Source: Crocinitomicaceae bacterium (GTDB lineage: Bacteria > Bacteroidota > Bacteroidia > Flavobacteriales_D > Crocinitomicaceae). Taken from it: a stretch of 51,087 nt of DNA. The DNA lies in assembly GCA_029252405.1 (NCBI GenBank), contig JAQXBM010000100.1, positions 1-51,087 on the forward strand, read 5' to 3'. Position 1 is the first letter of the stretch. Each line of letters starts with the position of its first letter. Of this stretch, positions 12,541 through 33,547 are shown in pieces. The notes beneath the pieces were generated by a model. It was given only the letters and a program-made list of their open reading frames with translations. It searched no databases and was not told the DNA's origin. Made by a program: the position numbers and the translations under genes.

Positions 12541-13320
12541 TTACAAGTTCACCTCTGCCCAAGCCTCTTTAAATGTGCTGCCAACAATGAGTTCCTCACC
12601 ATTGATAACGGCTTTTTTGTTTAGTTTTTTGTCCACTTTATCTTTTCGAATGATCAGGGAGCGCCTAATTTGCATGTATTCAATTGGGTCTGGGACGACA
12701 TCCAAAAATTCACAGAGTTTCATTCTAACAACACTACTCCTATCGGATCGATGAATTTCAATGTAGTTTTTATGAGAACTAACGTAACATACTTCTGATG
12801 AATCGATTCGCTCTTGCTCTTTGCCGCTAACTACCACGAAGGTTTGATCAATGCTCTCTTCTTTCTTCTTCTTACGTTTTGATTTAAACAAAGTGTTGAT
12901 GCAGGAAGAAATGTATGCTCCCAAAATCAGGTAGATTGACACGACCAACGCAAATGCAATAACGACTAATAACCAAGGATTCAAATAAAATGGTTGTGGA
13001 AATACCGTTTTGTATGTACTAAATACTTCGATCCAGTCTCCATGAATTTTAGATTGGACGATAAACTGATATTTACCCGTTCCAAGAGACTCATAAGCTA
13101 TGTTCGAACCAGTGTTGTACCTCCAATTTGCATCGTACCCCTCGAGGCGGTACCTAAAATCCATCAACTTGCTTTCGCCAATTTTCACATCATCCAGAAA
13201 GAACTCAAAACTCGATTCGTCGGAATACAGCATTTGGAAAATCCCTAAGACAAGGAAAATAAATAGAAACAGAAGAAGCAGCAAGGCTTCAACGCGCTTA
13301 TGAACAGTGGTATTCTTCAT
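12541..13320 (-). CDS. Membrane-bound LytTR transcriptional regulator with triple-Tyr sensor domain
   Basis: 259 aa. Order: a first membrane segment (about 10-31); an extracytoplasmic beta domain (about 32-108) with the Y_Y_Y-type pattern LMDFRYRLEGYDANWRY ... LGTGKYQFIVQSK; a second membrane segment (about 115-138); a basic linker (KSKRKKKKEE); and a C-terminal LytTR DNA-binding domain (about 155-255: FVVVSGKEQERID, YVSSHKNYIEIH, MQIRRSLIIRKDKVDK). Y_Y_Y domains usually follow beta-propellers in hybrid two-component sensors; here there is neither propeller nor kinase, so it appears to be a one-component regulator carrying a periplasmic signal directly to DNA. It is divergent from the FG-GAP lipoprotein gene across 332 bp, making that gene a natural candidate target (inference). 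Confidence 0.85.
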   Translation of the reverse strand: MKNTTVHKRVEALLLLLFLFIFLVLGIFQMLYSDESSFEFFLDDVKIGESKLMDFRYRLEGYDANWRYNTGSNIAYESLGTGKYQFIVQSKIHGDWIEVFSTYKTVFPQPFYLNPWLLVVIAFALVVSIYLILGAYISSCINTLFKSKRKKKKEESIDQTFVVVSGKEQERIDSSEVCYVSSHKNYIEIHRSDRSSVVRMKLCEFLDVVPDPIEYMQIRRSLIIRKDKVDKKLNKKAVINGEELIVGSTFKEAWAEVNL

Positions 13321-23596: not shown

Positions 23597-24580
23597 ATGA
23601 CTTTAATGATATCGATACTTCTTCCTTTTAGAAATGCCGCACGTTGGATTCAGGAAACTGTTCAATCCATTCAAGAACAAAGCTACGCGGACTGGGAACT
23701 GATCGCTGTGGATGATTTTTCAACCGACAGCTCAAATTCGATTCTCGAAGAACTGGCTAAAAAAGATGCTCGAATTCAAATTCACTCAAACACTGAAAAA
23801 GGAATAATTCCTGCCTTGCAAGTTGGACTGTCAAAAGCGAATGGTGAATTCCTAACGCGAATGGATGCGGACGACATCATGCCTGAAGATCGATTGCAAA
23901 TCATGGTAGATCGATTGAAATCACTTCCTGCAAAATCAATCGTCACGGGAAAAGTGAAACACTTCTCAAACAAACCTGTTTCTGATGGATATTTGAACTA
24001 CGACGCTTGGCTGAATAAGCGAGTTGAAAAGGAAGATTACTTCGACCACATGTATCGCGAGTGTGTTGTTGCCTCGCCTAATTGGTTGGCACGAACAGAT
24101 GACATAAAGAATTCTGCCATTTTCGAGAAGCTGGAGTACCCAGAGGATTATGACATGACCTTCCATTGGATGCAAAATGGATTTACTATTCAAGGGGTCA
24201 ATGAAACGACATTGCTTTGGCGAGAACACCCACATCGGACTTCTAAAAACTCGGATATCTATAACCAGAAAGCACTCTTTCAGTTAAAGCTGAATTGGTT
24301 CTGCAAACTCCACAACACGGATTCACTTGCTGTTCTTGGAGCCGGAACCAAAGGGAAAATCACCGCTGAATTCCTTTCCAAACGGAACATCGATTTCGGC
24401 TGGTATGATCTTGAATGGAAAAAATACGGAGCACCAATTTTCAATAAAGAAATCCAGGATTTTGAACTACTCGTGGGAGCGAAACTCCTCATTGCCATCT
24501 ATCCAAAAAACAAAAAGCCCTTGCTCGATTTTTTAACCGAGAAGGGCTTTGAAATAGGAAGAAACGCTTGGTTTCTTTAA
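23597..24580 (+). CDS. Family 2 glycosyltransferase with a C-terminal Rossmann-like extension
   Basis: 327 aa; no signal peptide or membrane segment. The GT-A catalytic domain (about 1-220) opens with ISILLPFRNAARWIQETVQSI; WELIAVDDFSTD gives the nucleotide-binding Asp residues and TRMDADD (about 94-100) the DXD metal site; CVVASPNWLAR lies further on. Residues about 245-327 add a separate segment, SLAVLGAGTKGKITAEFLSKR ... LLIAIYPKNKKPLLDFL, resembling an NAD-type Rossmann start or a PglD-like N-terminal domain. It probably adds a sugar to a surface glycan, acceptor unknown. Start: the ATG at 23597; the second Met (codon 4) is equally possible. Its last codons contain the terminator of the convergent operon. 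Confidence 0.88.
   Translation: MTLMISILLPFRNAARWIQETVQSIQEQSYADWELIAVDDFSTDSSNSILEELAKKDARIQIHSNTEKGIIPALQVGLSKANGEFLTRMDADDIMPEDRLQIMVDRLKSLPAKSIVTGKVKHFSNKPVSDGYLNYDAWLNKRVEKEDYFDHMYRECVVASPNWLARTDDIKNSAIFEKLEYPEDYDMTFHWMQNGFTIQGVNETTLLWREHPHRTSKNSDIYNQKALFQLKLNWFCKLHNTDSLAVLGAGTKGKITAEFLSKRNIDFGWYDLEWKKYGAPIFNKEIQDFELLVGAKLLIAIYPKNKKPLLDFLTEKGFEIGRNAWFL
24514..24550 (-). terminator. Terminator of the 33211-24587 operon, inside the glycosyltransferase coding sequence
   Basis: Arms AAAGCCCTT-g-CTCG and CGAG-AAGGGCTTT (24514-24527 / 24538-24550; 13 pairs with one bulge) enclose a 10-nt loop. On the minus strand the stem is followed by TTGTTTTTTGG. On the plus strand it is followed by GAAATAGG, with no U-tract. 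It therefore serves the minus-strand genes ending at 24587, although it lies 31 bp before the end of the plus-strand gene. Confidence 0.7.
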
Positions 24581-24586
24581 TGTCAT

Positions 24587-25318
24587 TTAGTTATTTCTGC
24601 CATGTCCAATTCCGACTTTTACACCGAAGTTGAATACGTATCTTGCTTGTGTGTATGAATTATCCAACCACTCTGTTTCGTAGGTGTTAGTATTTCCATT
24701 GTAAGTAGAAACCGCGTTGTACGTTTTCATTTGCTGATACCCAATCCCAAGTCCCGTAAAGAAATCCATACTGAATGATTTTGACATCCACAGTTGGTAA
24801 CCAATGTTAAAGGCGAAATTCATTCGAAGATCACTCCCATCTCTTGGATCGAGAATCTGTGATGCATCGTCAATTCCAAAGTTCATCAATTTAAATTTCA
24901 AGGTAGGCGAAAGATAAAAGCGATTCAGTGCTTCTGTTTCATCTAACGGGTAGAATCTATATCCTGCCTCAGCGAAGAAACCTAACTTACTCGTTTGGTA
25001 AGAATATGTTCCGTAAATAGGATCGACGTAGTGGTTTCCTCCACCATCTCCTAAAGAAATATTAGAAATTGTTGGTCCTGCACCGATCTCAAAACTGGTC
25101 TGCTTAGAGAGTTGTTTCTCAAATGAGAAATTGATCTCCCCCGCTAACAATTGTGTTGGTGTGAATTTAATTACTGACGTGTTATCGTTTAAACGAATCG
25201 GCTTTTTAGCACGTCTCGATCTGTTTGATTGCTCAATGACAACGATTTCTTGTTGAGCGATTCCCGAAGATACAACTACTAGCAGCGCTGTAATTGTTGT
25301 TAAGATTGTTTTTTTCAT
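24587..25318 (-). CDS. Outer-membrane beta-barrel protein, last gene of the nucleic-acid operon
   Basis: 243 aa with a signal peptide (about 1-21, ending SSGIAQ). The mature part is a small barrel: GEINFSFEKQLSKQTSFEIGAGPTISN and KLGFFAEAGYRFYPLDE are alternating strands with Gly/aromatic turns, and the last strand is YVFNFGVKVGIGHG. It resembles the generic outer-membrane beta-barrel/DUF3575-like proteins of Bacteroidota. It follows the metallophosphatase gene by 46 bp on the same strand and precedes the terminator at 24514-24550, so it is probably co-transcribed. The role is unknown; it may be a pore for small products (speculation). Confidence 0.8.
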   Translation of the reverse strand: MKKTILTTITALLVVVSSGIAQQEIVVIEQSNRSRRAKKPIRLNDNTSVIKFTPTQLLAGEINFSFEKQLSKQTSFEIGAGPTISNISLGDGGGNHYVDPIYGTYSYQTSKLGFFAEAGYRFYPLDETEALNRFYLSPTLKFKLMNFGIDDASQILDPRDGSDLRMNFAFNIGYQLWMSKSFSMDFFTGLGIGYQQMKTYNAVSTYNGNTNTYETEWLDNSYTQARYVFNFGVKVGIGHGRNN

Positions 25319-25364
25319 AATAGGTAGCTAATGCTGGTATAGGTATAACTAAGAAATAAATTAC

Positions 25365-26273
25365 TTATTGTACGATTAATACATCTTTTTTAGAAAAAAG
25401 ATGCGTATCAAATTCGAAGTCGATACGACCGAGTTGAACTCCAGCCCAACCCACTTGATTTATGAGTACCGTTTCCCCATTTGCATTCTTTGCTTCCGTT
25501 GGTTTTTCGAGAAAGGTGTGCGTATGTCCGCCAATAATTAAGTGAATTCCGCTTGTTTTCTGGGCTAGTACACGATCAGAAACCTTGTCTGTGTCGTACT
25601 CGTAACCTAGGTGCGACAGGCAGATGATTAAATCACAACCTTTCTTCTTGAGTTTGGCGGCAAGATCATTCGCAATTTCAATTGGATCATTGTAAACTGT
25701 TTCTCCGTATTTATTGTCGGGAACCAATCCTTTCAACTCAACACCGACTCCAAAAACTCCAATTTTTATTTTTCCTTTTTTGATGATTTTGTACTCTTCT
25801 GTATGACCATCAACTGGTGTATTTTTAAAAGCGTAGTTGGAACAAACGAACGGGAAGTCTGCGTATTCTTTCGCTTTCACGAAGCCATCCATTCCGCCAT
25901 CGAAATCGTGATTCCCCATGGTTGCGACATCGTATCCAAGTTTGGTCATGAGTTTCATTTCCAATACTCCACCGAACTTGTTAAAGTAAGGCGTCCCTTG
26001 AAAGATATCACCTGCATCGAGTAATAAAACGTTTTCCTCTTCTGATCGTATCTTTTGGATTATTTCGTAACGACGCGCTACTCCACCCTTCCCTGGATAC
26101 TTCGCATGGTTCTCAGGAAACGGATCGATGTTCGAGTGTGTGTCGTTCGTGTGAAGAATTGTCAATTTGTTATTTGGACTCACTTTGGATGAATCCTGTG
26201 CAATTGCACTTGGAGCTAGAATCAACCCACCAGAAACAACAACGGTATTTTGAATAAATTTCCTACGTTCCAT
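25365..26273 (-). CDS. 5'-nucleotidase metallophosphatase domain protein (UshA N-terminal half)
   Basis: 302 aa. The N-terminus ERRKFIQNTVVVSGGLILAPSAIAQ has a twin-arginine-like start and a hydrophobic stretch, so it is exported. The binuclear metallophosphatase motifs are all there: ILHTNDTHS, LLDAGDIFQGTPY, TMGNHDFDGG, ICLSHLGYE and IIGGHTHTF. It would remove the 5'-phosphate from nucleotides in the periplasm. The substrate-binding C-terminal domain that completes UshA-type enzymes is absent here and is encoded by the gene immediately upstream, whose stop overlaps this start (TGATG). The two probably assemble or act together. Confidence 0.92.
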   Translation of the reverse strand: MERRKFIQNTVVVSGGLILAPSAIAQDSSKVSPNNKLTILHTNDTHSNIDPFPENHAKYPGKGGVARRYEIIQKIRSEEENVLLLDAGDIFQGTPYFNKFGGVLEMKLMTKLGYDVATMGNHDFDGGMDGFVKAKEYADFPFVCSNYAFKNTPVDGHTEEYKIIKKGKIKIGVFGVGVELKGLVPDNKYGETVYNDPIEIANDLAAKLKKKGCDLIICLSHLGYEYDTDKVSDRVLAQKTSGIHLIIGGHTHTFLEKPTEAKNANGETVLINQVGWAGVQLGRIDFEFDTHLFSKKDVLIVQ

Positions 26274-26986
26274 CAGATCTTAATTCTTAGTTCGTCCGAC
26301 CAATTCAACAACTTTTGCTTCTTTGCAATTCGAATAAAAGCATCTCTCAACAATTCATTTGAATGCGTGACACTGACTTTCTTTTCGAAAAAAGTCATGT
26401 TATCTCCTCCATTCAACAAGTAATCTGAAGTGAGGATCCAAACCGTTTTTGTGTTAGCATTAACGCCATCCACTTCGAGCTTTCCATTTCGCAAGTATGC
26501 TCCACCAATTGGTTCTCCATTTCGAGAAGTCAAATACTCGGCGATCTCTGTCAATGTTTCCACGGGCATTTCCACCCAAACCACTTCATTATCGAAAGGC
26601 ATCACTTTCAACAAATCGCCAAGTGTCACATCTCCTTCATTGATGGTATTTCGCAATCCTCCAACATTTAATAAGCTGAAAGTTGGTCCAGATAATCGTG
26701 CATTTCCAATTTGAGACTCCAACAAGGCATCTGCTGCCCAATTGTTGAGTGCTCCGCCCGGCCTCCCTTTTTCGAAAGGACGCTCAGCGTATGCAATCAC
26801 TTCATTCATTTCATCCTCTAACTCATGCTTGTACGGATAAACCATACTATCAACAACGTTCGCTTCAGTTCCCTGAAACAATACGTCAGCGTTGCTTGAA
26901 TCGGATGAATTTAGCGTAATCGTATTAACAGAAGAGCAAGCCAAAAGGCCTGCTCCAACTGCAAATAATATGATGTACTTCAACAT
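26273..26986 (-). CDS. 5'-nucleotidase C-terminal domain lipoprotein
   Basis: 237 aa. The lipoprotein signal is AVGAGLLACSS, with Cys 17. The remainder matches the 5'-nucleotidase C-terminal (substrate-specificity) domain: NWAADALLES, LLNVGGLRNTINEGDVTLGDLLKVMPFDNEVV (given here in family-conserved pieces), and the late TSDYLLNGGDNMTFF. In UshA this domain binds the nucleoside. It has no phosphatase motifs of its own; those are in the next gene. Both ends are coupled: its ATG shares a base with the endonuclease stop (TAATG), and its stop shares a base with the metallophosphatase start. Confidence 0.9.
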   Translation of the reverse strand: MLKYIILFAVGAGLLACSSVNTITLNSSDSSNADVLFQGTEANVVDSMVYPYKHELEDEMNEVIAYAERPFEKGRPGGALNNWAADALLESQIGNARLSGPTFSLLNVGGLRNTINEGDVTLGDLLKVMPFDNEVVWVEMPVETLTEIAEYLTSRNGEPIGGAYLRNGKLEVDGVNANTKTVWILTSDYLLNGGDNMTFFEKKVSVTHSNELLRDAFIRIAKKQKLLNWSDELRIKI

Positions 26987-29268
26987 TATTGGATAACCAA
27001 TTTACGTTGAGTTGATCCAAGCGCCGTTTCCACGCGGATCATGTAAGTTCCAGTTCCAATCATGTCTTTCGACAATTGAACTACTGGAGAACTAATTTTG
27101 CTTTCTGTGCGAACGACACGACCGTTCATGTCGATTACTTCGTAAGCTGTGATATCCGTTCCGTTCACTTGAACATAAACAACATCGTTTGAAGGAACTG
27201 GGAACACAACAAAGTTTGCCTCCAATTTTTCTTCAATGTTAACAATACACCCATCTGGTTGATGAGCATTTGCATCAAAATCTACATAGCATGCGTAATC
27301 AACTGAATCGATGAATGGATTTCTGTTTCCTTGTAAGTCGAAAATGTATTCTTGACGAGCGATCTCGTAATTGTCAGGCAAATCTCCGAAGTGCCAGTTG
27401 CGCAAAGTTTCTTGATCTTGTTTGTCAGAATTTACGTTACCCGCCAAATCGAAGTTGTAAGTAACAACCATGTACATAATAGCACGAGCAGCGTTTCCTT
27501 TGTGACTTTCGCGTGGTTCATAAACCAATTGAGTTCCTTTGTATCCAACAGATCCTCCCAAGTAATTGAAAACTACGTTTCCATCGATATCATCTAAAGC
27601 TAGATTACTTCTTGGCGTATTTGCTTCGTCCAAGTTCGCAGGGTACAAAGCGTGTTGATCGCTGTACTCCGGCTCCTCTGGCATATCCGCTGGGAAAGAA
27701 GGCATCCATGAATGTGGGAATGTGTGCTCACGGCTGTATCCTGTTGCCGTCCAATCGAATGTTCCGTTGAACACTAGACGTTCTCCTGAAAGTGCACATG
27801 TTACGTAAGATTCGTTGTTCGTTGTATCTTTGATTTCGAACTCACTCATCATTGTCTGCTTGTATAAGAAGTATGAAAGTTGAGTATGAGGGTTAACCAA
27901 GTTGTAAAGATCCGTGTTGAATGTTGCTGCATTCTTGTCAATTGCACTGTAGTACGAACCGATGTTCTCACCTAAACTTGCAACGTTTCCTGTTAATGGA
28001 GATGTCGTCAAGAAGTTTTCAAATCCACCAGATCCATTAAACGCGTATACTGCGAAGTGGTAATCTTGATTAGCGATTACTCCACGTGGAGTGAATGATG
28101 TTCCAGGTCCCATGTAGGCAACTTTAGCATCACCAACAACATCACCACGAAGGTACGTTGTTCCGTCAGCAGGTACACCTGTAATTGCACTACCTTCCTT
28201 CCAAAGAACAAGGTAATTTGCAGCTCCTGATCCAGCAGCATATTGTCCGTTAACAGTATATGCTTCTGTAATAGGGAATGTCAATCCAGAAGGGTTTGCA
28301 GTTGGCTCAGTTGCCAAGTTATCCGTTCCTACACCTTCAAAGTTGATTATGTAAGGGTTCTCATCGGAATCATTGTTCCCAATAGTGATCGTTGCAAATT
28401 TAGATCCTCCCGTAGCAGGAGTAAATGAAATAGTGTATCCATTGTTTGACAAGGCACCGACAGAACCGGCAACAATATCAGATGAGAAATCTCCAGCATC
28501 TGGTCCTGAGAAAGAAGATCCTGTAATTGTCAAAGCATTTGACCCAGTGTTCTCAATTGTTACAGAAATACTCGCTGAGTTCCCTACAAAGTAAGATCCT
28601 CCGTCGAAAACTGTTGCCCCGTTCACCAATACATTAATTTCCTCTGAAGGAGCAACGTAAGGTATAATGTCATTCAAATCACGTGGAACGATTTGGTAGT
28701 TCGCATTGAACTGCCCCATCAAACCTACTAGTGAAACTGCTCCTGTTGGAATTGCTGTCCCTGCAATATTTGTACTTGCATTAACACGGATATCCAACGT
28801 GTTCGTTCCGTCAGTAACCTGAACAGTTGAGCTACCCCCTGCAAAGTTTCCTGTTTGCACAAACGTTACGTTATCTAACTGCACCAATTGTGATTCAATA
28901 GATTCGCCTGCCGCTGGAATAGAAATCAAAAGAGGGTTCGGCTGAACTACCGCTGGCCCATGATTAACTACTGCTCCTGCTGGAGAAACTTCCAACAGGC
29001 CTGCGAACTCGATAAGCGGTCCACTAACTGTAATAGAATCACCACGGTTTACACTATTTAAGGCATTTCCGTATGCTGCGAGTCCTGCAGTTCCATCCTG
29101 CATGTAACGGATAGGTCCAAGCTCAGAACCGTTTGTCACAACTCCTGAAATCGTAACCGTTGAATTAAGTGCATACGTACGAGCATCTGCGATGTCCGTC
29201 TGAGCGCTTGCACCCAGTCCGAGAGTTGCGCAAAGTGCTACTAGTAGAGATTTTTTCATCATTTTCAT
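26986..29268 (-). CDS. Secreted endonuclease I family nuclease with T9SS sorting domain
   Basis: 760 aa. Order: signal peptide (about 1-23, LGLGASAQ); an OB-fold-like domain (about 24-205, with TVTISGVVTNGSELGPIRYMQD); a choice-of-anchor/Ig-like domain (about 215-310, ENTGSNALTITGSSFSG); a fibronectin-like linker; the endonuclease I domain (about 435-665) with its key YSREHTFPHSWM motif (H515, H519); and a type A T9SS C-terminal domain (about 685-760, FVVFPVPSNDVVYVQVNG). Endonuclease I enzymes cut DNA, and often RNA, non-specifically outside the cell. T9SS export and the coupled 5'-nucleotidase genes point to use of extracellular nucleic acid. The size is large because of the accessory modules. 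Confidence 0.93.
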   Translation of the reverse strand: MKMMKKSLLVALCATLGLGASAQTDIADARTYALNSTVTISGVVTNGSELGPIRYMQDGTAGLAAYGNALNSVNRGDSITVSGPLIEFAGLLEVSPAGAVVNHGPAVVQPNPLLISIPAAGESIESQLVQLDNVTFVQTGNFAGGSSTVQVTDGTNTLDIRVNASTNIAGTAIPTGAVSLVGLMGQFNANYQIVPRDLNDIIPYVAPSEEINVLVNGATVFDGGSYFVGNSASISVTIENTGSNALTITGSSFSGPDAGDFSSDIVAGSVGALSNNGYTISFTPATGGSKFATITIGNNDSDENPYIINFEGVGTDNLATEPTANPSGLTFPITEAYTVNGQYAAGSGAANYLVLWKEGSAITGVPADGTTYLRGDVVGDAKVAYMGPGTSFTPRGVIANQDYHFAVYAFNGSGGFENFLTTSPLTGNVASLGENIGSYYSAIDKNAATFNTDLYNLVNPHTQLSYFLYKQTMMSEFEIKDTTNNESYVTCALSGERLVFNGTFDWTATGYSREHTFPHSWMPSFPADMPEEPEYSDQHALYPANLDEANTPRSNLALDDIDGNVVFNYLGGSVGYKGTQLVYEPRESHKGNAARAIMYMVVTYNFDLAGNVNSDKQDQETLRNWHFGDLPDNYEIARQEYIFDLQGNRNPFIDSVDYACYVDFDANAHQPDGCIVNIEEKLEANFVVFPVPSNDVVYVQVNGTDITAYEVIDMNGRVVRTESKISSPVVQLSKDMIGTGTYMIRVETALGSTQRKLVIQ

Positions 29269-29374
29269 TTTTTTGTTAAGGTCGAAATTGTTGTTTCGAT
29301 GTCTTGATCAGTTTGTTAAGTGATCGGCTTATTTATCATTTTCACTTTTGGTGTTTTACACCAGATAGTTTATT

Positions 29375-32194
29375 TTAAAATTCGAATCCAACGGAAACGT
29401 TAAAACGGATTCCTTGTCCAACAAACACTGCTGCCGAACCTGCGTCAAAATTACTTCCAACGAAGTTGTTACGCGCATCAGATATGTAAAGAGTATTCAA
29501 TACATTAAAGACATTTGCTCTAAAATTCAAAGCGCTGTTCTTCATTCTCAATCGATATCCTGCGTGAATACTCATTAAACCATAGCCTGGGACTTTCCAG
29601 GAGTCCTTTCCTGACAATTGATCAAAAGGAACAATGTTTCCATCATTATCCAAGTATTGCGTGTTCGGATCAGTTGCATCAACAGGAGTAAATAGACCAT
29701 CATCAGGAACAGAAAGACTGTTTGGCTCAAAGTTACTGTAGTAACGATCGAAGAACGTGTACTTCACTTTGATGTATCCCGTTTTCAAGAATCCCCATCT
29801 TAAACTAGCAGCATACGTCGATTGCGCCGAGTTTCCAACGTGTACCCCTCTTGCATAGAATGTAACTGAGTCACCTCCAGGAATAAGAACTGTTTCACTA
29901 GACTGCCATTTCCAATCTCCAATACTCACCATTCCTTCGAATGTAAGCTGTTTAGACATTCTATAGGCAAAATCAAGCTCTCCACCCATGTGCAACGCAT
30001 CCATTCCAGGTACGTTAACCGATACTGTTTCCAATGGATCATTTGGATCTGGAACTGTAAGACCAAACGGTAACGGACGGTTTTCCCATCGCGTGTAGTA
30101 ACCATTTAGGTTCGCACTAAATTTCTTTGTTGTGAAACCATATCCTAATTCGAACGCGATAATATTCTCGTTCAAAATTGTATCAAAATGACGGTTTCTC
30201 GTGTTGTCGACAACATTCGAGAATTGTGGTGTTCTGCTCAAATAACCAACGTTGGCAAATACATTCATTTGCTCGTTAATATTGTAGTTCGCCCCCGTTT
30301 TAAACGTTGCGCCTACTTTTGAAGCCCAATCCGTTTGGTTTACTCGAACACCATCTGAGTTATGATCATACGTTTGACCGTTGTACGTGATTGTATCACC
30401 ATACCCCATTTCTAAGGTCGTATCCGCAAGAACTAACTGTCTTTTTGCCATGCGATCCACTCCTTTATAGAAATTCGCAACGGTAGAAATGTTTAAGAAT
30501 GTTGACCAGCGTCCTTTTGAGAATTCAGCTTGACCGAAACCTCCAGCCCACTGTACAATTCCATCTCTGTCGTTGTGATAAGGCTGACGTCCGATTCTAT
30601 CTCCGACAACTTTCATCGGAGACTCAGCATTCAAGTCCTGGTTGTTCACGAAGTATTCTCCTCCGAGCAAGTCAGTAACTTCGTAGTAGTGCGTTCCTTT
30701 GTAGAATCTGTAATCGAGACCTCCTGCGAAGTTCCAATTAGGATTCGGTTTGTAATCAAATTGAGAAAGACCACCAATCCAGAAGTGATTGTTCACTGCT
30801 GCAGCCAAAACCTGAGATGATTTTAATTGTGTTGGGTGGTAAGCGGCATCCGCTGTGGAGTAAGTCGTACCAAATAATGTTTTGTATTGATTGTTGTAAA
30901 CAATCGTGTCCCAGTCTATTTGTCCATTCTCATCGTAAATGATTGACGAACCTGAATTGAAGTAACGCTCTCCTCCACCTCTACCGATAGATACATACGC
31001 CATATTCGACCAAGACAACTTCTTATTTACCTTCCAGAAATCTTTAAGTGTGATTTGCGGTTTGTGGTAAAAGTTACGTCGCTCATTTTGGATTGTTTGT
31101 TTTCCATCTACCGTTCTGTATCCCCAGTGTTGGTTGAATTGCAATCCGCGATCACGAACAGTTCCAAATGTTGAATCTGGAATTCCGAGGCTTCTTGCAT
31201 AATCCGAGTCCCAGTACTCCACTGCTTGGCTGTATGAGCGCTGACCGTGTTGTTGAGGAGCACCAAATCCGCTCAATGAAACAACGTGATTTTTGATACG
31301 TTTTTGAACTTTCAAGTAGTAAAACCCTCCTTGAGTCATTAGTCCATCAACCCATCCATCTCCTTGCTTGTATGATGCTGATGCTAACACACCCCATCCA
31401 TTTTTCAAGGCTCCTGATTTATACGACAATGAAGTTCTGAGGAAATTCCCCGCTCCATATTCTTGTCGAACTTTGATCTGGCGTTTTCCACCAGTAGACA
31501 TCGTGATGATGTTCATCGTCCCCCCAACTGAAGGCATGGCCAATTTCGTAGCCCCTAAACCACGTTGCAATTGAATTTGAGAAGTAATTTGATCCAAACC
31601 GAACCAGTTTGACCAATATACTGCGCCGTTTTCCATGTCGTTCACTGGAACCCCATCGATCATTACTCCAACATTACGTTGGTCGAATCCACGGATTGTG
31701 ATACGAGCATCTCCATCTCCTCCACCTTGCTGTGTGGCGTGCACACCAGGCTTGGAGTTCAAGATCATTGGAAGATCTTGCGACCCCAATTCCTCATTAA
31801 TTTCTTTTGTTCCGATATTGGATACCGCAACTGGTGTTTTTCTATCCTTCACCAATTGTGCAATTACCTCAACCTCTTCCTGATCCAATGTTTTACCATG
31901 GAATACGTCGTAAACGAAAGGGCTTTCATTCACATCAACCTCAACGATCATTGAATCAACATTCAATCCTGTGATAACCATATTGTATACTCCAAAAGGG
32001 ACATTGTCAATGGTGTACAAACCATCCATGTCCGTTTTTGCTCTTAATGGAGTTTCAGAAGGTTTTAGTTCGATTTTCATTCCTGGCATTGGTAGCCCAT
32101 CCAAATTTGATTTTAGGACTCCAGATACTTGAGAATTTTGCGCACCTGCCGATAAGGCAACTAAAAACGCGAAAATTGATACAATTGATTTCAT
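29375..32194 (-). CDS. TonB-dependent outer-membrane receptor
   Basis: 939 aa. Signal peptide about 1-19 (FLVALSAGAQ). A carboxypeptidase-regulatory-like domain (about 22-100: SGVLKSNLDGLPMPGMKIEL ... MDGLYTIDNVPFGVYNMVI) precedes the plug (about 118-235: NSKPGVHATQQGGGDGDARI, RGFDQRNVGVMIDGVPVNDM). The rest is a 22-strand-type barrel ending in FNVSVGFEF with the terminal Phe. It imports a ligand using TonB energy. No SusD partner is adjacent, so it is not a standard SusCD pair. The operon context (secreted nuclease, 5'-nucleotidase) suggests a nucleic-acid-derived ligand or the metal these enzymes need; the ligand is inferred. 106 bp precede the nuclease gene. Confidence 0.93.
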   Translation of the reverse strand: MKSIVSIFAFLVALSAGAQNSQVSGVLKSNLDGLPMPGMKIELKPSETPLRAKTDMDGLYTIDNVPFGVYNMVITGLNVDSMIVEVDVNESPFVYDVFHGKTLDQEEVEVIAQLVKDRKTPVAVSNIGTKEINEELGSQDLPMILNSKPGVHATQQGGGDGDARITIRGFDQRNVGVMIDGVPVNDMENGAVYWSNWFGLDQITSQIQLQRGLGATKLAMPSVGGTMNIITMSTGGKRQIKVRQEYGAGNFLRTSLSYKSGALKNGWGVLASASYKQGDGWVDGLMTQGGFYYLKVQKRIKNHVVSLSGFGAPQQHGQRSYSQAVEYWDSDYARSLGIPDSTFGTVRDRGLQFNQHWGYRTVDGKQTIQNERRNFYHKPQITLKDFWKVNKKLSWSNMAYVSIGRGGGERYFNSGSSIIYDENGQIDWDTIVYNNQYKTLFGTTYSTADAAYHPTQLKSSQVLAAAVNNHFWIGGLSQFDYKPNPNWNFAGGLDYRFYKGTHYYEVTDLLGGEYFVNNQDLNAESPMKVVGDRIGRQPYHNDRDGIVQWAGGFGQAEFSKGRWSTFLNISTVANFYKGVDRMAKRQLVLADTTLEMGYGDTITYNGQTYDHNSDGVRVNQTDWASKVGATFKTGANYNINEQMNVFANVGYLSRTPQFSNVVDNTRNRHFDTILNENIIAFELGYGFTTKKFSANLNGYYTRWENRPLPFGLTVPDPNDPLETVSVNVPGMDALHMGGELDFAYRMSKQLTFEGMVSIGDWKWQSSETVLIPGGDSVTFYARGVHVGNSAQSTYAASLRWGFLKTGYIKVKYTFFDRYYSNFEPNSLSVPDDGLFTPVDATDPNTQYLDNDGNIVPFDQLSGKDSWKVPGYGLMSIHAGYRLRMKNSALNFRANVFNVLNTLYISDARNNFVGSNFDAGSAAVFVGQGIRFNVSVGFEF

Positions 32195-32215
32195 ACAAAA
32201 ACTTGCTTTTCATGA

Positions 32216-32242
32216 AAAGAGGTCGAAAATTTCGACCTCTTT
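32216..32242 (-). promoter_or_regulatory. Intercistronic hairpin before the TonB-receptor gene
   Basis: A perfect palindrome with 13-bp arms (32216-32228, 32230-32242) fills most of the 66-bp gap between the lamin-tail gene and the receptor gene. On the minus strand the stem ends CCTCTTTTCATG, a weak U-tract. It may act as an attenuator or mRNA-stability element that sets different levels for the two genes. Confidence 0.55.
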
Positions 32243-32260
32243 CATTGTTTTATTTTGTAA

Positions 32261-33211
32261 TTATTTAACGATTACTCGTTTTGTAATATCGTTTCCTAAA
32301 GAGTCTTTCATTTTCACGAAGTAGACACCTCTTTTAGTTTCCAAATCGAAAGAAAGAACTGCATTCGAGTTATTCTTTACTGTTGAAATAGTTTGTCCTA
32401 AAGCGTTTACTACAACTACGTCACCGTAAGCACCTTTAACGTAGAACTCTCCGCTTGTTGGATTTGGGAATACTGAAACTTTCTCAGCAGCTAACTCTTC
32501 TGTTGAAGCTGGCTCACATCCACAATCGTGTTCACCAAGGCTAGACCAGTTTCCGTATTCTTGTCCTCCGATATCAATTAAAGCAGGAATTGAGTCATAC
32601 TCTGCAAGTGCATCAAAGAAAGCAATTGCTGGGTTAGTTTCTCCTGTCATTACAGTTGATTTACGGATCAACGAATGATCTTTCGTTACAACAGTTCCTG
32701 CACCTGTGTACGGGAAATCAGTTGACCATCCATCACCTGGATCTTCACCAATTTTCCCAAAAATATCTACTACAACTGCAGTTCCTGGGTTTGCTGCATC
32801 ACCTTTTGCCAAAGCTACAGCATCGTTTCCGTTCCAGTAGAATGTATTAGATACTGCATATACTGGGCTATAGAATGCATCAGCACGAGCTTGTAAAGAA
32901 TCCCAAACTGGAATATCTTGAGCTGTTCCGTTTGGATCTAATTTCTCAAGTACTCCAACATGTACATCGTAAGCTCCAATTGTTCCTGTTAATTGCACCG
33001 CGTTTTGCGCAGTTGCAGAAGTAGCACCATTTCCGTAACGAATAACAATGTATTCGCTTAAATCTATTGAAGCGGCAGTAGGATTATAAATTTCAAGTGC
33101 TTTATTGTTTCCAACACCTTCAACATACTCTGAAATGAATAAATCCGAGCAATCCTGCGCATATGACATTGTCGCCATGATTGTTCCGATAAATAGTAAT
33201 GTTCTTTTCAT
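32261..33211 (-). CDS. Secreted lamin-tail-domain protein with T9SS sorting domain
   Basis: 316 aa. Signal peptide about 1-18 (ATMSYAQ). Residues about 20-170 form a lamin-tail (LTD) domain: CSDLFISEYVEGVGNNKALE, then IYNPTAASIDLSEYIVIRYG and the late FYWNGNDAVALAKGD. The C-terminal ~75 residues are a type A T9SS sorting domain (VSVFPNPTSGEFYVKGAYGD ... RGVYFVKMKDSLGND). LTD domains are often found in secreted bacterial nucleases and phosphatases, where they are thought to bind nucleic acid or the cell surface. Here the domain is free-standing, first in the operon with the TonB receptor and endonuclease. It could capture extracellular DNA (inference). Confidence 0.9.
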   Translation of the reverse strand: MKRTLLFIGTIMATMSYAQDCSDLFISEYVEGVGNNKALEIYNPTAASIDLSEYIVIRYGNGATSATAQNAVQLTGTIGAYDVHVGVLEKLDPNGTAQDIPVWDSLQARADAFYSPVYAVSNTFYWNGNDAVALAKGDAANPGTAVVVDIFGKIGEDPGDGWSTDFPYTGAGTVVTKDHSLIRKSTVMTGETNPAIAFFDALAEYDSIPALIDIGGQEYGNWSSLGEHDCGCEPASTEELAAEKVSVFPNPTSGEFYVKGAYGDVVVVNALGQTISTVKNNSNAVLSFDLETKRGVYFVKMKDSLGNDITKRVIVK

Positions 33212-33547
33212 AGGGATTATATTATATAATTGTTATTTACTGATTAAGAGACGATAGCGTAATTCAATTCGTTGGGTCGAATTTTCTCTTGGGAATCTTA
33301 CAACTAACTGTTCTATTCTACGCGTTTGAATCGTTAAAATACTTTTATGGTTTCCGCACATGTTTGCTTCTAGGATGACATAACCGTATTCGAGTACAAA
33401 AATAGGTCATTTTGCCTATGTGTACATAATTTAATTATTAACAAATCGTAATCTTTATTCATGGTTAATCGGTTAAGTAACATTCATATCCCCATACTAT
33501 TCGAAATACAATTCCTATTTTTAGCATTCTCAATTTAAAACAAACAC
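33212..33547. other. 336-bp divergent intergenic region
   Basis: AT-rich, with no open frame or RNA gene that I can support. Towards the S9 peptidase there is TATTTTTA (33516-33523), one base from the -7 consensus and 24 nt before its ATG. I find no clear Bacteroidota promoter for the leftward lamin-tail operon, which may mean a regulated or non-housekeeping promoter. Confidence 0.5.

What the first reader, a model, noticed from the sequence alone, without database searches (positions are those of the whole stretch)
24514..33211. A possible nucleic-acid scavenging operon: lamin-tail protein, TonB receptor, secreted nuclease, split 5'-nucleotidase, barrel
Six same-strand genes with short gaps or overlaps run in the order LTD/T9SS protein, TonB-dependent receptor, endonuclease I/T9SS, 5'-nucleotidase C-domain lipoprotein, 5'-nucleotidase metallophosphatase, barrel, then a terminator. 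Each family is seen in the sequence; its general activity is known. Inference: DNA is bound and cut outside the cell, the products are dephosphorylated, and a product (nucleoside, oligonucleotide, phosphate) or required metal enters by the TonB receptor. It is organised like a polysaccharide utilisation locus but lacks SusD and targets nucleic acid.
Basis: partly seen in the sequence, partly recalled or inferred. Interest (0 to 1): 0.72.

Follow-up and report, generated by a model that had tools for sequence, protein, structure and literature searches.

The report
DNA-scavenging operon with new leader RNA
A row of bacterial genes looks like a kit for cutting up DNA outside the cell and taking in the pieces, and its messenger RNA appears to start with a small folded RNA, not found in the RNA family library searched, that in related bacteria also sits in front of certain large secreted proteins.

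Summary
In detail: six co-directional genes (LTD/T9SS, TonB-dependent receptor, endonuclease I/T9SS, 5'-nucleotidase C-domain lipoprotein, metallophosphatase, barrel). Corrections: a conserved terminator-like hairpin follows gene 1, and the barrel is variable (13 of 40 loci). Order is not chance: the first five genes keep it in 36 of 40 family loci (family Crocinitomicaceae, by named relatives), and LTD-receptor-secreted protein in 17 of 19 loci elsewhere in the order. Of 14 such third genes scanned, 7 carry endonuclease I and 7 the unrelated PLD fold, all with a T9SS tail. This swap favours a nucleic-acid substrate. The operon holds the genome's only 5'-nucleotidase C-domain match; the two halves carry different export signals. 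New: right after the promoter box lies a ~64-nt structured RNA (11-bp covarying stem, nearly invariant CCU(U/A)GA/GAAACC loop), unmatched in Rfam, in 96 of 150 family genomes. Further copies precede other genes, mostly large T9SS proteins (CHU_C tail 25, SprB repeats 21 of 35). Best reading: a DNA-scavenging, PUL-like locus without SusD, under a new cis-regulatory RNA. Substrate, transported product and RNA signal are inferred, not shown.

The parts
33397..33404 (-). promoter box TATTTTTG (Bacteroidota TAnnTTTG)
   Evidence: sequence; such a box lies 3-13 nt before the RNA stem in 65 of 77 elements against 52 of 1540 random windows; consensus TAnnTTTG from PMC9723704 (passage)
33333..33396 (-). 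structured leader RNA next to the promoter (P1 33379-33389 with 33339-33349; internal loop CCUAGA / GAAACC)
   Evidence: model R1 51.5 bits, the only match at E <= 10 in the own genome; the window's element is one of the 36 the model was built from; covariation
32261..33211 (-). lamin-tail-domain protein with T9SS tail (LTD)
   Evidence: Pfam LTD 2.5e-9, Por_Secre_tail 9.9e-9; matches the N-terminus of the ExeM exonuclease model NF033680 at 1.7e-19, far below its whole-protein cut-off
32216..32242 (-). terminator-like perfect hairpin between LTD and receptor
   Evidence: such hairpins in 23 of 40 loci, background 111 of 2000
29375..32194 (-). TonB-dependent receptor without SusD partner
   Evidence: Plug 8.2e-15; CarboxypepD_reg 4e-6, below its cut-off
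26986..29268 (-). endonuclease I with DUF5689 and T9SS tail
   Evidence: Endonuclease_1 7.7e-23, DUF5689 9.2e-14, Por_Secre_tail 5.8e-8; PDB 1oup 1.1e-6; SREHTFP and HALYPANLDEANTPRSN motifs
26273..26986 (-). 5'-nucleotidase C-domain as separate lipoprotein
   Evidence: 5_nucleotid_C 1.4e-12; PDB 3ivd, UshA; lipobox pattern in 35 of 37; only such match in the genome
25365..26273 (-). 5'-nucleotidase metallophosphatase half with twin-arginine signal
   Evidence: Metallophos 4.1e-21; PDB 5'-nucleotidases 2.1e-36; RR near the start in 35 of 37; TatC in the genome
24587..25318 (-). barrel-like DUF3575 protein, variably present in relatives
   Evidence: DUF3575 8.4e-6; matched in 13 of 40 family loci
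24505..24550 (-). intrinsic terminator after the operon
   Evidence: inverted repeat AAAGCCCTT...AAGGGCTTT plus T run, by eye

Best explanation
A nucleic-acid scavenging locus, organised like a polysaccharide utilisation locus but without SusD. The LTD protein and the endonuclease I are carried out by the type IX system and bind and cut extracellular nucleic acid, most likely DNA, at the cell surface. The TonB-dependent receptor brings oligonucleotides or nucleotides into the periplasm. There a two-piece 5'-nucleotidase (catalytic half through Tat, substrate-binding half as a lipoprotein) removes phosphate, so that nucleoside and phosphate can enter the cell. The transcript starts with a small structured cis-regulatory RNA that tunes the operon together with, in related genomes, a few T9SS proteins; an internal terminator lets the LTD protein be made in excess. 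Shown by sequence: the genes, domains, conserved order, exchange of the third gene's catalytic domain, the RNA, its covariation and its place beside the promoter box. Inferred: secretion and export routes, DNA as substrate, what the receptor carries, assembly of the split enzyme, excess of LTD, and what the RNA does and responds to.
For: Domains. Five genes in order on one strand in 36 of 40 family loci; core three in 17 of 19 loci outside the family and in one second-copy locus inside it, the two failures lying where contigs end. Third genes scanned: Endonuclease_1 in 7 and PLDc_2 in 7 of 14, all 14 with a T9SS tail, one of them below the curated cut-off. L079 carries two further nuclease-family genes downstream. 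Five of 20 phylum-level receptor relatives lie beside a type I phosphodiesterase/nucleotide pyrophosphatase gene. One 5_nucleotid_C match in the genome; TatC present. RNA: 10 of 11 stem pairs with compensatory change; covariation score 0.775 against 0.208 in shuffles on 77 sequences; 96 of 150 family genomes; no Rfam match. LTD + Endonuclease_1 proteins induced by phosphate depletion: PMC8115612.
Against: No experiment. PLD-fold enzymes include phospholipases as well as nucleases (recalled). Only 2 of 20 phylum-level receptor loci show a match to the window's nuclease. The RNA's other targets are adhesin-like proteins with no visible nuclease role, so its signal need not concern nucleic acid. 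The RNA was not found in the order-level operon loci, in 4 of 39 family operons, or in 9 of 97 family genomes with the receptor, and 8 genomes have it without the receptor. The genome has a second endonuclease I homologue elsewhere, so the operon is not its only one. No Pho-box or purine motif was tested. Part of the family synteny could be inherited neighbourhood: DPP4 is beside it in 36 and citrate synthase in 34 of 40 loci.
Confidence: 0.6

Rival explanations
1. The secreted nuclease remodels extracellular DNA (biofilm, attachment, competitors' DNA) and the receptor imports something else, such as a metal or cofactor; nucleotide salvage is a by-product. The shared RNA then marks a surface-lifestyle regulon of adhesins plus nuclease.
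For: The RNA's other targets are mostly T9SS proteins, CHU_C in 25 and SprB repeats in 21 of 35. The best NCBIfam match of the receptor is a vitamin B12 receptor model over the plug region, far below cut-off.
Against: A 5'-nucleotidase in the same tight operon and the fixed receptor-nuclease pairing through domain exchange fit feeding better.
Confidence: 0.25
2. The core is a DNA-uptake device for natural transformation.
For: A nuclease and an LTD protein beside an outer-membrane channel.
Against: No competence family among the matches of the six; nucleotidase genes point to full breakdown; TonB-dependent receptors are not known to me as DNA translocators (recalled).
Confidence: 0.05
3. The leader element is not a metabolite sensor but a 5'-terminal stabilising hairpin or a binding site for an RNA-binding protein.
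For: It lies next to the promoter box (3-13 nt downstream in 65 of 77), so near the 5' end; the leaders of the other genes are too short for a terminator platform (median 15 nt to the start codon in the 26 of 39 where an ATG start could be set).
Against: CCU.GA and AAACC are unchanged over 76 rows but for one C-to-T, more than a plain stabiliser needs; a protein site remains possible.
Confidence: 0.45
4. The gene row is inherited neighbourhood without joint function.
For: DPP4 and citrate synthase genes stay beside it in 36 and 34 of 40 family loci.
Against: Outside the family those neighbours were not matched in any of the 19 loci while LTD-receptor-third gene remains in 17; genes 3-5 overlap or touch.
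Confidence: 0.05

Closest known systems
F. johnsoniae extracellular nucleases EndA1/EndA2 and Pus phosphate utilisation systems (PMC8115612, abstract, passages and table row seen)
   Same: LTD and Endonuclease_1 domains together; TonB-dependent transporters and SusCD-like complexes induced with phosphoesterases on phosphate depletion; PUL-like clusters
   Different: There LTD and nuclease are in one protein listed as orphan, and PusCD pairs are described; here LTD and nuclease are separate genes flanking a receptor, with no SusD and with a split nucleotidase
Extracellular DNA degraders of marine sediment incl. Lutibacter (PMC8289736, passages seen)
   Same: Bacteroidota with secreted nucleases plus periplasmic nucleotidases; LTD named in a pathway figure legend
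   Different: 'tonb' does not occur in its main text; no such locus was among the passages seen
SusCD polysaccharide utilisation loci
   Same: Plan of surface protein, secreted depolymerase, TonB-dependent importer, finishing enzymes (plan recalled)
   Different: No SusD; target appears to be nucleic acid
UshA/NadN-type 5'-nucleotidases
   Same: Both domains, with metal-site motifs and GG.R, PF.N, NGGD motifs
   Different: Two genes, the C-domain gene first, with different export signals
Riboswitch-like leader RNAs in Rfam 15
   Same: 5' leader, stem with conserved internal loop and compensatory changes
   Different: No Rfam family matched; ligand unknown

Membership tests
SusCD polysaccharide utilisation locus | SusD-like lipoprotein beside SusC | tested here: not met
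   no SusD family among the matches of the six proteins
SusCD polysaccharide utilisation locus | TonB-dependent receptor | tested here: met
   Plug and CarboxypepD_reg; match of the first 181 profile positions to a SusC homologue in PDB, 3e-11
Phosphate utilisation system (Pus) | induction by phosphate depletion | not testable with these tools
   no expression data held
Endonuclease I | family profile and REH / RSN motifs | tested here: met
   Pfam 7.7e-23; SREHTFP...RSN in the window. Pattern counts depend on the pattern: a narrow one gave 5 and 6 of 59, a looser one 41 of 59, the 18 without including PLD-type loci and, by one letter, the window itself
Type IX secretion cargo | C-terminal sorting domain | tested here: met
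   LTD and nuclease proteins, Pfam and TIGR04183 over cut-off
5'-nucleotidase (UshA type) | metallophosphatase and C-domain present with motifs | tested here: met
5'-nucleotidase (UshA type) | both domains in one polypeptide | tested here: not met
   two separate genes
Rfam RNA family | match to a curated model | tested here: not met
   no match to the element in window 24-34 kb; chance-level matches only in one relative's leader; in ten other-copy loci only tmRNA, tRNAs and one chance match away from the element
Riboswitch | conserved covarying structure in 5' leaders of several genes | tested here: met
Riboswitch | binds a metabolite and changes expression | not testable with these tools
   needs probing and reporters

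The most novel reading that the evidence does not exclude
The leader RNA is a new riboswitch class of Crocinitomicaceae and a neighbouring family. It senses a small molecule, perhaps a nucleotide-type signal or a nucleic-acid breakdown product, and switches a regulon made of the DNA-scavenging operon and SprB-repeat T9SS proteins.
Probability: 0.3. Interest if true: 0.85.

Novelty: new variant of a known kind. Interest (0 to 1): 0.62.

Why it matters
[quoted passage not shown] It also supplies a compact, strongly covarying leader RNA outside Rfam with a defined set of target genes in named genera (Fluviicola, Brumimicrobium), so both the transport question and the RNA's signal can be tested directly.

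Tried and rejected
Natural-transformation reading: rejected as main reading, no competence family among the matches of the six. A general leader for all T9SS cargo: rejected, the own genome has one RNA match although the nuclease's T9SS tail region alone matches eight other places. LTD as the common feature of all RNA-led proteins: by eye the INEVSQG domain looks LTD-like, but Pfam finds LTD in 3 of 35 and profile comparison gave 18% probability over 54 columns, so not claimed. DNA operator: disfavoured because the arms vary with compensation while the loop is fixed. AlphaFold models of receptor and LTD protein came out weak (mean pLDDT 58.5 and 52.1), so no fold search was made. The model hit at window 12636-12716 (E 2.3) is taken as chance. 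The sigma-70 and terminator scans found fewer sites than shuffles and carry no weight alone. A Pho-box search was not done: I had no trusted consensus for this family. One covariation measure is uninformative: the number of pairs with a change on both sides was reached by 18, 323 and 31 of 500 shuffles on the three alignments. Loci kept in the counts although odd: L070 (second receptor paralogue), L073, L083, L095 (contig ends), L096 (second copy in the family). Left out of the 35-protein scan: L153 (116-aa frame), L167 (the LTD operon itself), L170 (no large gene close by), L181 (receptor-like gene, scanned apart), L188 (contig end). The RNA pattern scan of the named collection gave 106 stretches, 80 listed; 29 passed the model at E <= 1.6e-4, one more had E 0.96, and the rest are taken as chance.
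Full report
What is there. Six minus-strand genes run from 33211 to 24587 as described. Domain scans give LTD plus a type IX tail, a TonB-dependent receptor (Plug; CarboxypepD_reg below its cut-off), endonuclease I with DUF5689 and a type IX tail, a 5'-nucleotidase C-domain, a 5'-nucleotidase metallophosphatase, and a DUF3575 barrel. The nuclease aligns to solved endonuclease I (1oup, 1.1e-6), the metallophosphatase to 5'-nucleotidases (2.1e-36) and the C-domain to 3ivd and UshA. No SusD family is among the matches of the six proteins. The genome has one other endonuclease I homologue (C62, 29% over the nuclease and tail regions).

Operon layout. Nuclease, C-domain and metallophosphatase genes overlap or touch, with median gaps of -1 and 1 nt over 36 and 37 loci. 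Between LTD and receptor there is a perfect hairpin with a T run at 32216-32242. Terminator-like hairpins occur at that place in 23 of 40 loci (39 family loci and the window), against 111 of 2000 random windows of the same loci; none was found in the three later gaps. So LTD may be made in excess over the rest. A terminator follows the barrel at about 24505-24550 (by eye).

Conservation inside the family. The receptor has a match at E <= 1e-60 in 97 of 150 family genomes. I fetched 40 family loci around receptor matches. LTD-receptor-nuclease-C-domain-metallophosphatase stand in order on one strand in 36 of the 40. The four others are a second receptor paralogue (L070) and three loci without a match to the two nucleotidase genes in the stretch held (L062, L073, L074; L073 is a contig of 9668 bases). 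Apart from L070, LTD falls to 36% and the receptor to 38% identity. The barrel is matched in 13 of 40. DPP4 is matched in 36 and citrate synthase in 34 of 40, so some of this is shared neighbourhood.

Conservation outside the family. The receptor matches at E <= 1e-80 in 204 of 299 order genomes and 61 of 296 phylum genomes. I fetched 20 more loci from the listed, better order-level hits: 19 in other families and one second copy in the own family (L096). LTD-receptor-third gene is kept in 17 of the 19 and in L096; the two failures (L083, L095) lie where contigs end. The nucleotidase pair and the DPP4 and citrate synthase neighbours had no match in these loci. I scanned 14 of the third genes, all outside the family: 7 carry Endonuclease_1 and 7 carry PLDc_2, all with a type IX tail, one below the curated cut-off. 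All 7 PLD-type proteins keep a BLAST match to the window nuclease's N-terminal part, and Pfam finds DUF5689 in 5 of them. L079 adds an Exo_endo_phos_3 gene and a type IX-tailed Exo_endo_phos gene downstream. Exchange of one catalytic fold for another beside the same LTD and receptor argues for a nucleic-acid substrate; the PLD fold also serves phospholipases (recalled), so this is strong but not proof.

Phylum level. I fetched 20 receptor relatives outside the order (30-34% identity by BLAST) and scanned at least one neighbour in 16 of them. Five lie beside a type I phosphodiesterase/nucleotide pyrophosphatase gene (L100, L101, L111, L114, L116). L110 has an endonuclease I gene as second gene downstream. 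L099 has a DUF5689/Exo_endo_phos gene upstream with an arginine decarboxylase gene between. The other neighbours scanned showed no link to nucleic acid that I can see; L104, L105, L107 and L108 were not scanned. So the wider receptor group is mixed.

Split nucleotidase. The catalytic half carries a twin arginine near its start in 35 of 37 and the C-domain half a lipobox pattern in 35 of 37 (36 relatives and the window); the genome has TatC. The metal-site motifs D.H and GNH are found in 37 of 37, the other three patterns in 31, 35 and 35 of 37; of the C-domain patterns PF.N in 37, GG.R in 36 and NGGD in 34 of 37. The window's C-domain gene is the only 5_nucleotid_C match in the genome. If the halves form one enzyme they must meet after export by two routes; this is inferred.

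The leader RNA. Listing the region upstream of LTD showed a conserved element next to the promoter box, which I aligned from 36 sequences. RNAalifold predicts an 11-bp stem of which 10 pairs show compensatory change. With an inner helix P2 added, 83.7% of cells are paired against 63.9% in shuffles, none of 500 reaching it; the outer stem is 93.2% paired, P2 only 62.8%. A covariance model finds one match at E <= 10 in the own genome, 33333-33396, and matches at E <= 0.1 in 96 of 150 family genomes and in 80 of 299 order genomes, all in the family or in one other family, f3. In the family sample 88 genomes have both receptor and RNA, 9 only the receptor, 8 only the RNA (from the lists). A wider model finds 4 of 296 phylum genomes; two are the window's genome and a family member, two are marginal hits. 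Among the 39 fetched family loci with the LTD gene, 35 carry it; L062, L071, L076 and L077 do not. It was not found in the order- and phylum-level loci L079-L118. No Rfam family matches it.

The other copies. Forty further places, chosen from the lists, were fetched, and the model finds all again. L167 is the LTD operon itself in a fragmented genome. Of 35 proteins scanned, 25 have the CHU_C type IX tail, one Por_Secre_tail, 21 SprB repeats, 3 LTD; some of the frames run off their contigs or stretches. L181 precedes a receptor-like gene. The stem of these copies covaries as strongly (92.5% paired against 58.5%, on an alignment fitted to the model). On all 77 elements the covariation score is 0.775 against 0.208 in shuffles and at most 0.201 when slid; P2 is 75.8% paired (same caution). 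In 76 rows CCU.GA and AAACC change only once, the U before GA is A in six, and the G of GAAACC is A in five. A TAnnTTTG box ends 3-13 nt before the stem in 65 of 77, against 52 of 1540 random windows. The start codon is a median 144.5 nt after the element in 38 LTD operons and 15 nt in the 26 of 39 other genes for which an ATG start could be set. The element is thus probably the 5' end of the transcript, and for many of the other genes it lies close enough to the start codon to act on translation.

Names. A pattern scan of the named genome collection gave 106 stretches, 80 listed; 29 pass the model, among them Brumimicrobium aurantiacum, B. mesophilum, B. salinarum and Fluviicola chungangensis, two genera of Crocinitomicaceae. 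The contig lengths of B. aurantiacum and F. chungangensis equal those of family genomes G006 and G104, which names the family. In 22 of the 29 the LTD gene is matched beside the RNA; in L234 the stretch ends at the RNA; six show no operon gene.

What is known. F. johnsoniae nucleases listed with fn3, LTD and Endonuclease_1 families are induced at low phosphate and marked orphan (PMC8115612, table row). Marine Bacteroidota with secreted nucleases and nucleotidases are described as DNA degraders (PMC8289736, passages). Structured leaders without Rfam match are reported for F. psychrophilum; the genes named in the section read are not those found here (PMC9723704, section 19). The listings showed me no paper on this locus or RNA; the library holds open-licence papers only.

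Verdict. The nucleic-acid reading is the best one at about 0.6. The new element is the leader RNA, whose structure is well supported and whose function is open.

Noticed in passing
L079 13383-15716: In the other order family f3, the LTD-receptor-nuclease row is followed by two more nuclease-family genes (Exo_endo_phos_3, and Exo_endo_phos with a type IX tail).
   Followed up: partly
G000:C62:342931-343875 (L002): The window's genome has a second endonuclease I homologue outside the window, 29% identical over the nuclease and tail regions.
   Followed up: no
L181 6294-6358 and 3643-6162: In one f3 genome the leader RNA precedes a gene with a weak TonB Plug match rather than an adhesin-like gene.
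   Followed up: partly
L150, L152, L164: The RNA precedes a large protein followed by genes of similar size in all three (about 327 and 300 aa), a second possible operon type; not identified.
   Followed up: no
L070: A second receptor paralogue in a family genome without LTD, nuclease or nucleotidase matches beside it.
   Followed up: no
G126:C7: The receptor of one same-genus genome has stops inside its frame and may be a pseudogene although the leader RNA is present on the same contig.
   Followed up: no
L208: The record named Glaciecola amylolytica CP034120.1 carries this operon and RNA, and its length equals that of a contig of family genome G096, so the name looks wrong.
   Followed up: no
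window 24505-24580: The operon's terminator overlaps the 3' end of the convergent glycosyltransferase gene.
   Followed up: no
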